From: Opitutales bacterium
Lineage (GTDB): Bacteria > Verrucomicrobiota > Verrucomicrobiia > Opitutales > Seribacteraceae
Reading direction: 5' to 3'
NCBI GenBank assembly: GCA_028042835.1
Contig: JAOFOL010000003.1
Coordinates: forward strand, 22,310-86,309
Length of the DNA: 64,000 bases
Shown one piece after another: positions 45,786-50,786 of the stretch; position 1 is the first letter of the stretch, and the number at the start of each line of letters is the position of its first letter. The notes beneath the pieces are model-generated. The model ran no database searches, had not been told where the DNA came from, and saw only the letters and a program-made list of their open reading frames with translations. Made by a program: the position numbers and the translations under genes.

Positions 45786-45926
45786 AAACCAACACGGAAG
45801 CCAACACGGAAGCCAAGGTTGTTGTTGCGGTTGCTCGGGGTGTTGTTGTTGCGCTTAGCAGAACGCAGGTTCGTCCCGTCGTTGTTCCAGGAACCACCCC
45901 GTTTGACCCGATTCGAGCCCGATGCC
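45786..45926 (-). repeat. DGR template repeat (TR), 141 bp
   Basis: Aligns gap-free to two 129-bp VRs except for one extra 12-bp unit (tandem aacacggaagcc, 45791-45814). The equivalent reading SNRVKRGGSWNNDGTNLRSAKRNNNTPSNRNNNLGFRVGF is rich in Asn (AAY) codons, as expected of a TR. Confidence 0.97.
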
Positions 45927-45966
45927 CTCGTCTTGCGCCCTAAATACATAAATCGTTGAATATTCT

Positions 45967-47723: not shown

Positions 47724-50700
47724 CTATTGCTTTTGGAAACCAACACGGAAGCCAAGGTGGGAGTTGCGGTAGCTCGGGGGGCTGTTGCCGCGCCTAGCAG
47801 AACGCAGGGCCGTCCCGCCGGAGTCCCAGGACCCACCCCGACTGACCCGACGCGAGCCCGAAGCCGGTCCGGTAGGATCAACCACCGGGTTGCCAGTTGG
47901 ATAGGCCGCCTGGTACCAGTCCGCGGTCCACTCAAAGACATTTCCGTGCATATCGAAAAAGCCCCACGGGTTGGCTGCATAGTAGCCCACATCTCGGGTC
48001 TGGCTCAGACCACTTACACTGTAATTAGCCCGTGTTGCATTAATATCATCATCCCACGAATACATTGTGGTCGTACCCGCACGGCAGGCATATTCCCATT
48101 GCGATTCGGTGGGCAACCCATAGGCCCAACCGGCGGGAATATTCGCGGATTGCTGGGCATTCAAACGGGTCAGGAAAATCTGAGCATCTGCCCAACTGAC
48201 TTTCTCCACCGGACGATTCGGATTGTTCGGCCATTCACTCGGCTTCGCACTGAGGCTGTCGGTGTTACCGGTCATCACCGCCTCGTACTGGGCCTGTGTA
48301 ACTTCGTATTTACCGAGGTAAAACCCTTTGGTTAAGGTGACATTGTGTTCGGTTTCATTCGTTCCCCTACCCGTTTCCGTGGTTGGACTGCCCATGGTAA
48401 AGGTGCCGGGTTCCACCCAGAGCATTTGCAACTGGACGGTGGCATTGAGCTCGGCGTTGTGCGTGCTCGCCTGTCCGACATTGACTGTTCGGGTGGCATT
48501 CGCCTCATTACTGGCTCCGTCGGATATGGAATAAGTTAAGGTGTACACTCCGGTGGTGTTGACATCCACCGTGCCGGTGATGGTGATGGAACTGGTCAGG
48601 TTGCCGTCGAGGCTGTCACTGGCGGTGGCTCCGGGATCCACCCAGGCGGAATTCTTCGCCTGGGACATATTGGCATCGCCCAGCAGGGTGAGTACCGGAT
48701 TAGTGGTGTCCATCACCATGACGGTGCGGGAAGCATTGGCCTCATTCCCCGCGGCATCCGCCACGGAGTAAGTTAAAATGTAGGTGCCCGTCGTGTTCAT
48801 ATCCACCGTACCGGTTACGGTGATGGAAGCGGTCAAATTTCCGTCCCGCGCATCGTGCCCCGCTGCGCCTGGCTCCGCCCAGGCTTGCCCGGCCTCACGC
48901 GTGATCCCAGCTCCCCCGAACAATTCCAGTTCGGGATTCGCCCCGTCTGGCTTGACTGCTTGGAAACCAACACGGAAGCCAAGGTAGTTGTTGCGGTTGC
49001 CCGGGGCGTAGCTGACGCGCAGAGCAGAACGCAGGAACGTCCCGTCGCTGCTCCAGGAACCACCCCGTACGACCCGATCCGAGCCCGATGCCGGACCCTC
49101 AGGATCGGTCTGGGCACCAGTAAGATAGTTCGCCTTCCAGTCGTGGACCCATTCCCACACATTTCCGTGCATGTCAAAAAAGCCCCATGGGTTGGCGGAA
49201 AACTGGCCGATGTTCACGGTTTGCTTGGAATCATTGCCGTCATTTCCACCGCCGTCCCAATTGTAATTGGCACGGGAGGAATTAATATCATTGCCCCACG
49301 AGTACGCCGTGGTCGTGCCTGCCCGGCAGGCATACTCCCACTCCGCCTCGGTGGGCAATACGTATTTCCAGCCGTTGGGCAATCGACCCGCGGACTGTTC
49401 AATCGAATTTAAACGGGTCAGAAAGATTTGGGCATCCTCCCACGAGGCTTTTTCCACCGGGCGGTTACTTCCTTTAAACTGGCTTGGGTCGGCGTTCAAA
49501 CCCTCGGAGTTTCCATTCATCACCGTTTGGTACTGTGCCTGGGTGACCTCGTACTTACCGAGGTAAAACCCATTGGTCAGGGTGACCTGGTGCTGGGTCT
49601 CATCCCCTCCCCGTCCAGTTTCACTGGTCGGACTGCCCATCGTAAAGGTGCCCGGCGGGCAGAAAATCATTTCCATACTGATCGAAGCCACCGTGTGTGC
49701 GCTCGGGGTGCCGTCCACCTGTAGAGGGGTGAGGGCGGAGGTGACCGAACCAAAGTCATTGCTCACCACCACACTGTAGTTCCCGTCGTGCAGAGAACCG
49801 TTCACATCCGCGATACTGAAACTTGGACCTGTTGCCCCCGCAATCGGTTGGCCATTGCGTTGCCATTGGTAAGTCAGGTACTTCCCCTGTGCCTGCGAGG
49901 TCAGGTTCATGCTCTGCCCGCTAAAGATCAGTCCGGGTGCTTGGGGTTGCAGGGTAATCTCCGGTTTTAAATACTTTAATATCTGCTCGTTCAACTGGGC
50001 AGTGGTGATGGTGTTTGCGGCGATCTCGGAGGAAGTGACCGTGCGGTTGAGGTCGGATAACACATCCTGTCCGAGCATCTGTTTTGTGACAGTCCTGTTA
50101 AGATCTGCTTTAATTTGTGAAGACAGATTCTGGTGCTTCACCGTGCGGTTAAGGTCCGCCAGTACATCCGCCGGTAGCATGTCGCGGGTGATTGGGCCAA
50201 TGTTTCCCCCACTCGCATTGCTTTCCAACTTTGATGTAACTTCAGGAGCGAGCATCGAAAGGGTAATCGGGCCAACCGGGGCGGAGCTATGATTTGCATC
50301 CAGTTTGGACAGCACATCTGAGGCTAGCATGTCGGAGGTAATGGCACCCGAAAGTTTTTCCGCAACCTTGGCAACTTTCGCCACCTCCGCAACCAAGGCC
50401 CGCGGAGTGGCGGTGATCAATTGATCGGGAGTGAGGTGCCGTAAGCCCTTGCCGTCCCCGTTATCAAAGCGGACTTTCAAATACAATTCATCATAATCCA
50501 AAAATAATTGCGGGGGTAAGGAATTCATCCCCTGCCCGCCAAGAAGAACATTATACCGCCCGTTATATATCTGTACCTGAATTGTGGAACCAGGAGTTTG
50601 TCCATTTCGCCACGCAGTCGTGCCATTTCCATCGTGCAAAGAAAAAGTGAAGTTCGCATCACCATGGTAATTCACTCCCCCAATCGAAACCTTTCCCGAA

Positions 50701-50786
50701 TACGGAACCGGGTTCGCAGACCATAGGAAAAGCGTGGAAAAAAGGAAAAAAATCAGAACAGGTAGGTTTTTCATAACAGAAATCAA
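47724..50786 (-). CDS. DGR target: secreted multidomain protein with two FGE-sulfatase/C-type-lectin-fold domains, each ending in a variable repeat
   Basis: 1020 aa; signal peptide; stalk-like repeats; Ig-like domain (LTYQWQRNGQPIAGATGPSFSI...GNYSVVVSN); FGE domain 1 (FTMGSPTSETGRGGDETQHQVTLTNGFYLGKYEVTQAQY...), two DUF5011-like repeats, FGE domain 2 at the C-terminus. Confidence 0.95.
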   Translation of the reverse strand: MISVMKNLPVLIFFLFSTLFLWSANPVPYSGKVSIGGVNYHGDANFTFSLHDGNGTTAWRNGQTPGSTIQVQIYNGRYNVLLGGQGMNSLPPQLFLDYDELYLKVRFDNGDGKGLRHLTPDQLITATPRALVAEVAKVAKVAEKLSGAITSDMLASDVLSKLDANHSSAPVGPITLSMLAPEVTSKLESNASGGNIGPITRDMLPADVLADLNRTVKHQNLSSQIKADLNRTVTKQMLGQDVLSDLNRTVTSSEIAANTITTAQLNEQILKYLKPEITLQPQAPGLIFSGQSMNLTSQAQGKYLTYQWQRNGQPIAGATGPSFSIADVNGSLHDGNYSVVVSNDFGSVTSALTPLQVDGTPSAHTVASISMEMIFCPPGTFTMGSPTSETGRGGDETQHQVTLTNGFYLGKYEVTQAQYQTVMNGNSEGLNADPSQFKGSNRPVEKASWEDAQIFLTRLNSIEQSAGRLPNGWKYVLPTEAEWEYACRAGTTTAYSWGNDINSSRANYNWDGGGNDGNDSKQTVNIGQFSANPWGFFDMHGNVWEWVHDWKANYLTGAQTDPEGPASGSDRVVRGGSWSSDGTFLRSALRVSYAPGNRNNYLGFRVGFQAVKPDGANPELELFGGAGITREAGQAWAEPGAAGHDARDGNLTASITVTGTVDMNTTGTYILTYSVADAAGNEANASRTVMVMDTTNPVLTLLGDANMSQAKNSAWVDPGATASDSLDGNLTSSITITGTVDVNTTGVYTLTYSISDGASNEANATRTVNVGQASTHNAELNATVQLQMLWVEPGTFTMGSPTTETGRGTNETEHNVTLTKGFYLGKYEVTQAQYEAVMTGNTDSLSAKPSEWPNNPNRPVEKVSWADAQIFLTRLNAQQSANIPAGWAYGLPTESQWEYACRAGTTTMYSWDDDINATRANYSVSGLSQTRDVGYYAANPWGFFDMHGNVFEWTADWYQAAYPTGNPVVDPTGPASGSRRVSRGGSWDSGGTALRSARRGNSPPSYRNSHLGFRVGFQKQ
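47737..47865 (-). repeat. DGR variable repeat 1 (C-terminal VR, 129 bp)
   Basis: Eye alignment with TR: 21 substitutions, 20 at TR adenines on the coding strand; encodes SRRVSRGGSWDSGGTALRSARRGNSPPSYRNSHLGFRVGF. Confidence 0.97.
48964..49092 (-). repeat. DGR variable repeat 2 (internal VR, 129 bp)
   Basis: Eye alignment with TR: 16 substitutions, all at TR adenines on the coding strand; encodes SDRVVRGGSWSSDGTFLRSALRVSYAPGNRNNYLGFRVGF. Confidence 0.97.

What the first reader, a model, noticed from the sequence alone, without database searches (positions are those of the whole stretch)
45786..50786. Complete diversity-generating retroelement: target - HRDC accessory - reverse transcriptase - TR
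All DGR components lie on the minus strand within ~5 kb. The RT has YMDD and the SQ-type motif 4 (IGSLASQ). A 141-bp TR lies 40 bp past the RT stop. Two 129-bp VRs in a secreted FGE/CLec-fold protein differ from the TR at 37 positions in total, 36 of which are TR adenines on the coding strand. Both VRs are in frame and lack stop codons, so the element looks functional. DGR logic (adenine-specific cDNA mutagenesis and retrohoming) is established; activity here is inferred.
Basis: partly seen in the sequence, partly recalled or inferred. Interest (0 to 1): 0.93.

Follow-up and report, generated by a model that had tools for sequence, protein, structure and literature searches.

The report
Mutation-generating retroelement diversifying tandem surface domains
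A marine Opitutales bacterium carries a complete, apparently functional genetic device (a diversity-generating retroelement) that copies a small template with errors at its A bases and pastes the result into surface-protein genes; the machinery is of a known kind, but here one template serves at least four sites in two genes, and close relatives in the sea show the variation exactly where the device should put it.

Summary
Target, HRDC accessory, reverse transcriptase (RT) and template repeat (TR) lie on the minus strand at 45786-50786. The genome holds two further variable repeats (VRs) on another contig, in a second two-VR paralogue, so one TR/RT serves four VRs in two genes. The four VRs differ from the TR at 75 core positions, 74 of them TR adenines. 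Between the VR-bearing domains, upstream DNA is 69-86% identical, VR non-A sites 99-100%, TR-A sites 22-41%: the signature of retrohoming with adenine randomisation. A sister species has ten VRs in about five genes. The cassette has probably moved between species (RT DNA 91-95% identical; rpoB 77%). The ~165 nt after the TR encode a covarying structured RNA, presumably the counterpart of the Bordetella phage spacer; distant HRDC-type DGRs carry a different one resembling Rfam RT-3 RNA. HRDC accessories, TR after RT, multi-VR FGE targets and trans targets are each known. It is a well-supported new member of a known kind.

The parts
47724..50774 (-). Target gene: secreted protein of 1016 aa with a signal-peptide-like start, an N-terminal region, Ig_3, FGE domain 1, two surface Ig-like domains and FGE domain 2 (ORF runs to 50786 if the TTG start is used)
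   Evidence: best PDB match by sequence and by fold is TvpA 2y3c
48967..49092 (-). VR1, internal, 3' end of FGE domain 1, in frame, no stop
   Evidence: 16 of 16 differences to the TR at TR-A
47740..47865 (-). VR2, C-terminal, 3' end of FGE domain 2, in frame, no stop
   Evidence: 20 of 21 differences to the TR at TR-A
46975..47466 (-). HRDC accessory protein, 163 aa: a conserved N-terminal beta-alpha-beta-beta domain without a Pfam match plus a C-terminal HRDC domain
   Evidence: PF00570 E 9e-21; AlphaFold model pLDDT 89.6; Foldseek hits cover only the HRDC part; homologue next to the RT in most relatives
45967..46944 (-). DGR reverse transcriptase, 325 aa, IGSLASQ and YMDD motifs
45801..45926 (-). 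Template repeat (TR), 126-nt core, 32 adenines
45789..45800 (-). 12-bp tandem duplication (CTTCCGTGTTGG) at the TR 3' end, absent from all VRs and from the TR of sister species G040
45636..45802 (-). Structured RNA downstream of the TR (presumed spacer of the TR transcript), ending in a 9-bp hairpin GGAGGAGAT...GTCTCCTCC
   Evidence: 36 pairs, 11 with changes on both sides (shuffled mean 3.4), 95.7% paired; independent match in L082, E 5e-16
50881..51240 (.). Dispersed MITE-like repeats upstream of the target
45142..45620 (.). Dispersed MITE-like repeats downstream of the TR/spacer

Best explanation
This is a functional diversity-generating retroelement of the HRDC-accessory type. Shown by sequence: an intact DGR-clade RT, an HRDC accessory, a TR with a covarying structured 3' RNA, and four in-frame VRs in two paralogous secreted proteins that each carry two FGE domains. 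Inferred from known DGRs: the TR plus spacer is transcribed; the RT (with the HRDC protein in the place Avd takes in phage DGRs) binds the spacer RNA and makes cDNA with random bases opposite template adenines; the cDNA replaces the 3' part of an FGE domain, in cis in the neighbouring gene and in trans in the gene on contig C50. The result is a repertoire of surface proteins whose putative ligand-binding faces vary at up to 17 codons per VR (about 6e17 amino-acid combinations per VR). What the proteins bind is unknown; binding of surfaces, particles or phages is only a guess from the fold and the signal peptide.
For: 74 of 75 VR/TR differences at TR-A, p 8e-12 to 3e-16 per VR, 30 of 32 A sites hit, no stops. 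VR non-A identity 99-100% against 69-86% in the adjoining 500 nt and 22-41% at TR-A sites, which duplication plus selection cannot give. Strain pairs: L072/L073 27/4360 differences outside against 24/126 in the VR, 21 at TR-A, p 3e-12; L074/L075 23/126, 21 at TR-A, p 2e-13; TRs identical or with 2 changes. Nine more metagenome TR-VR pairs: 156 of 174 differences at A. VRs follow their own species' TR at diagnostic non-A sites. RT phylogeny and motifs. One RT in the (63% complete) assembly, so the C50 VRs are served in trans. Same order target-HRDC-RT-TR in about 25 distant relatives with A-biased VRs. FGE fold model closest to TvpA.
Against: No direct evidence of activity in this strain: one genome, no reads, no expression data. 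The strain pairs are close relatives (RT 92-95% identical), not the same species. In a third pair (L075/G040) the VR differs at only 3 sites, so diversification is not constant. No hairpin of the BPP-1 type conserved after the VRs. The role of HRDC as Avd substitute rests on position only.
Confidence: 0.95

Rival explanations
1. A DGR that was active in the past but is now silent in this lineage, the VRs being relics.
For: No reads from this strain; eight sister-species MAGs carry VR-like targets without any RT or TR, so targets can outlive or be separated from the machinery; the TR has a derived 12-bp duplication.
Against: RT, HRDC and both VR frames are intact; only 1 of 376 non-A VR sites differs from the TR, so the last rewriting was recent; relatives with the same duplication in the TR (for example L083, L067) also have diversified VRs; close relatives vary in populations.
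Confidence: 0.07
2. Ordinary gene duplication and gene conversion among FGE domains, with positive selection on surface residues, producing an accidental excess of changes at A.
For: The targets are clearly paralogues made by domain and gene duplication.
Against: The near-perfect restriction to TR adenines including all three codon positions (GCA to GCT/GCC is silent), the sharp boundary of homogeneity at the VR, and the linked RT with SQ motif.
Confidence: 0.01
3. The RT belongs to a group II intron, retron or other defence RT and the repeats are unrelated.
For: NCBIfam and PADLOC scans give sub-threshold hits to group II intron and DRT models.
Against: All are far below cut-off; DGR motifs, tree position, and a TR-VR pair beside the RT in about 25 relatives; the best PDB match by far is the 328-aa RT 8ub7.
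Confidence: 0.01

Closest known systems
Treponema denticola DGR (TvpA target, HRDC accessory; PMC4891356, PDB 2y3c)
   Same: HRDC accessory protein; FGE-type secreted target; best fold and sequence match to TvpA.
   Different: T. denticola has the accessory gene between TR and RT; here the TR follows the RT. Here each target has two FGE/VR units and a second target lies elsewhere.
Marichromatium purpuratum 984 DGR (three VRs in one ORF of three tandem FGE paralogues; PMC3521204)
   Same: Several tandem FGE domains, each with a VR, in one ORF.
   Different: Its authors could not tell whether that ORF is an artefact or a pseudogene; here the arrangement recurs in a second gene, a sister species and marine contigs, which shows that it is real.
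Thiohalocapsa PB-PSB1 DGRs (PMC10907252)
   Same: Targets with several VRs, diversification in trans, MITE-like repeats at the loci, population variation.
   Different: PB-PSB1 targets are linked to defence NTPases; no such domain is seen in this window's target. Other RT lineage and phylum; here a single RT in the assembly.
Bordetella phage BPP-1 DGR (Brt/Avd/Mtd)
   Same: Mechanistic prototype; YMDD and SQ motifs; structured RNA 3' of the TR (PMC12875486).
   Different: Avd in place of HRDC; TR before RT; GC-rich hairpin after the VR (PMC3240598), not conserved here.
Rfam RF03068 RT-3 RNA
   Same: The spacers of distant HRDC-type DGR relatives match it in register just after the TR (L103 32.2 bits, E 3e-6).
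   Different: Below the curated cut-off of 40.5; the window's own spacer matches neither RT-3 nor model R2.

Membership tests
Diversity-generating retroelement | RT of the DGR clade with SQ motif 4 and Y[M/V]DD | tested here: met
Diversity-generating retroelement | TR/VR pair with differences essentially only at TR adenines | tested here: met
   74 of 75 over four VRs
Diversity-generating retroelement | VR in frame in a C-type-lectin/FGE or Ig-fold target | tested here: met
Diversity-generating retroelement | TR itself stays unchanged while the VR varies between close strains | tested here: met
   In relatives L072/L073: TR 0 differences, VR 24; not testable for this strain
Diversity-generating retroelement | Accessory gene (avd or HRDC) | tested here: met
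   HRDC; adjacent to the RT in most relatives
Diversity-generating retroelement | Structured RNA 3' of the TR that recruits the RT complex | tested here: inconclusive
   Conserved covarying structure present; its role was not tested
Diversity-generating retroelement | IMH at the VR 3' end followed by a GC-rich hairpin with GRNA loop (BPP-1 and phage DGRs) | tested here: not met
   A conserved A-free CTTGGCTTCCGTGTTGG ends every VR, but no conserved 7-10 bp hairpin follows; this feature defines phage DGRs, not the whole family
Diversity-generating retroelement | RT-dependent mutagenic retrohoming shown by experiment | not testable with these tools
   Needs a reconstituted system or isolate
HRDC-type DGR, TR downstream of RT (group 2 of PMC3521204) | Order target-HRDC-RT-TR on one strand, no avd | tested here: met
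   Window; same order in about 25 relatives
Group II intron / retron | Maturase domain or retron msr-msd with the matching RT clade | tested here: not met
   RT ends after the thumb region at 325 aa; group II RTs form a separate clade; retron model 55.6 bits against a cut-off of 235
Rfam RF03068 RT-3 RNA (for the window's spacer) | Covariance-model score at or above 40.5 | tested here: not met
   No match in the window

The most novel reading that the evidence does not exclude
HRDC-type DGRs work with their own class of structured TR-spacer RNAs in place of the Avd-bound phage spacer; the orphan Rfam motifs RT-3 (and perhaps RT-14) are such spacers, and the window's spacer is a third, undescribed type. 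In this Opitutales genus the RT/HRDC/TR/spacer cassette moves laterally and re-randomises resident families of tandem-FGE surface proteins that persist in species where no RT was found.
Probability: 0.35. Interest if true: 0.68.

Novelty: new member of a known kind. Interest (0 to 1): 0.45.

Why it matters
It adds a population-supported cellular DGR in Verrucomicrobiota and shows that proteins with several diversified FGE domains, which the 2012 survey could not distinguish from an artefact, are real and recurrent: two genes here, about five genes with ten VRs in a sister species, and metagenome contigs. One TR that feeds up to ten sites across a genome makes a testable model of a coordinated surface repertoire. 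The covarying RNA beside the TR, and the match of distant relatives' spacers to the RT-3 RNA motif, give a concrete hypothesis for how Avd-less DGRs load their template.

Tried and rejected
Viral contigs as carriers: no relative found. BPP-1-type hairpin after the VRs: not conserved; short TTGG-TTT-CCAA stems are explained by the conserved Gly-Phe-Gln codons. Rfam on the window: no match. R1 on distant DGRs: no convincing match even with filters off; R2 on the window: none, so the two spacer types could not be joined. PADLOC and NCBIfam RT hits (group II, DRT, retron) rejected as sub-threshold. Indels and frameshifts in G040 VRs discounted: many unrelated genes of that assembly are also frameshifted. 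Sigma-70 promoter scan: none found. The N-terminal domain of the HRDC protein gave no fold match. The Weinberg 2017 paper behind the RT-n motifs is not held, so whether the RT-3/DGR link has already been published could not be checked.

Full report
Observation. Ungapped alignment gives VR1 48967-49092 and VR2 47740-47865 against a 126-nt TR core 45801-45926.

More targets. A search of the own genome (2.1 Mb, 63% complete) with the TR finds five copies: the TR, the two VRs, and two more VRs on contig C50. These lie in a paralogous ORF with two FGE domains, cut by the contig end (L007 9694-11799). Only one RVT_1 gene is in the assembly, so the C50 VRs must be written in trans unless another RT lies in the missing third. 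Over all four VRs 74 of 75 core differences are at TR-A, 30 of 32 adenines are hit at least once, and none creates a stop. Seventeen codons are variable at the protein level, with about 5.8e17 combinations per VR; two lysine codons (AAA, AAG) could give stops.

The signature of rewriting. Between the four VR-bearing domains the 500 nt upstream of the VR are 69-86% identical, the VR's non-A sites 98.9-100%, and its TR-A sites 22-41%, close to the 25% of random letters. A TR that overwrites VRs and randomises adenines predicts all three numbers at once. VRs of sister species G040 mostly follow G040's TR at non-A diagnostic sites 67, 109 and 112, those of G000 follow G000's; the two VRs on G040 contig C17 lag behind.

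Population test. A metagenome scan with the RT gave about 20 marine contigs with RTs above 75% identity. L072 and L073, with identical TRs, differ at 27 of 4360 positions outside TR and VR and at 24 of 126 in the VR, 21 at TR-A (p 3e-12). L074/L075: 3.1% outside, 23 of 126 in the VR, 21 at TR-A (p 2e-13). L075/G040 differ at only three VR positions.

The enzyme and its partner. The RT has the SQ and YMDD motifs, groups with four named DGR RTs against four group II intron RTs, and best matches a 328-aa solved RT, the length of BPP-1 Brt. The HRDC protein has a homologue beside the RT in 87 of 101 relatives' loci, several of the rest being cut short. The order target-HRDC-RT-TR holds in about 25 loci from Planctomycetota, Kiritimatiellota, Bacteroidota, Hydrogenedentota and unbinned contigs. 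Its N-terminal domain, about 60 residues in a beta-alpha-beta-beta order, is conserved, modelled with high confidence, and has no Pfam or PDB relative found here.

The RNA. The DNA after the TR is conserved for about 165 nt. Its consensus fold has 36 pairs, 11 with changes on both sides (shuffled mean 3.4, 0 of 500 as high; slid controls 1-3), 95.7% of cells paired. A model built from it finds one sequence not used in training, L082, at E 5e-16. In BPP-1 the spacer after the TR folds, recruits the RT-Avd complex and primes cDNA (PMC12875486); the same role is inferred here. More distant HRDC-type DGRs have another covarying spacer (20 of 26 pairs with both-sided changes against 11.3 shuffled). 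A model of it finds some 18 further loci at E below 1e-3, most just after the TR, and L103's matches Rfam RT-3 RNA in register (E 3e-6 in 301 bases, below the curated cut-off). L096 has a sub-threshold RT-14 match. The window's spacer belongs to neither by score.

Spread. Of 29 same-genus genomes only G032 and G040 besides the own one have a close RT. RT DNA is 95% and 91% identical to theirs, while rpoB is 77% identical to G040's and a fatty-acid gene 71% to G032's. The gene neighbourhoods differ. This indicates lateral transfer. G040 has ten VRs: three in one reading region beside its RT, two on C4, two on C17, two at the facing ends of C14 and C15, and a diverged one on C4. Eight sister genomes hold VR-like sequences, many with differences mainly at TR-A, but no RT and no TR. 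Loss, lateral turnover and failed assembly at repeats cannot be told apart.

Known precedents. HRDC accessories are listed for DGRs (PMC3240598, PMC10053308, PMC4891356). TR after RT is group 2 of the 2012 survey, which also reports three VRs in a tandem-FGE ORF and could not say whether it was an artefact (PMC3521204). Of multi-VR DGRs, 11% have several VRs in one ORF (PMC6642488). Trans targets, targets with several VRs and MITE-like repeats are described in Thiohalocapsa (PMC10907252). Hence 'new member of a known kind', with well-supported activity in close relatives and one lead, the spacer RNAs, that may be new.

Limits. The genome is incomplete; metagenome contigs are consensus sequences and their VRs could be mixed; function of the targets and of HRDC is inferred; no reads were available.

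Noticed in passing
45142-45620, 47614-47637, 50881-51240; L007 9017-9606: MITE-like dispersed repeats (TTGTCATYGCGAGG ... CTCCTCGCAATGACAA, units of about 140 bp) flank the cassette on both sides and follow the second target; 10 of the 18 genome-wide copies of the 16-mer (up to 1 mismatch) lie at the two DGR loci.
   Followed up: partly
45789-45814: 12-bp tandem duplication at the TR 3' end, shared with several relatives and absent in G040/L075; its second copy supplies one strand of the predicted spacer helix 1.
   Followed up: partly
L103 4695-4836; L101 9580-9708; L096 1274-1394: TR spacers of distant HRDC-type DGRs match Rfam RT-3 and RT-14 RNAs below the gathering score; these motifs may be DGR spacer RNAs.
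   Followed up: partly
L058, L147-L154, L157: Sister-species MAGs (G041, G038, G037, G039, G015, G022) carry VR-like targets, up to eight in G038, without any RT or TR found.
   Followed up: partly
46975-47240: Conserved N-terminal domain of the HRDC accessory (FxIPxxGDxxxEEELNxFLR...WCFxV) with no Pfam or PDB relative found here.
   Followed up: partly
47460-47720 and L007 9430-9693: The 250 bp downstream of both targets look homologous by eye, so the target gene seems to have been duplicated together with its 3' flank.
   Followed up: no
L180 2209-2679 (contig C45): Another protein with the N-terminal and stalk-like region of the target (33-53% identity), without a match to the FGE domains in the stretch fetched.
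   Followed up: no
L049: Sister assembly G040 has frameshifts in many genes, as in uncorrected long-read assemblies; its VR indels are not trustworthy.
   Followed up: no
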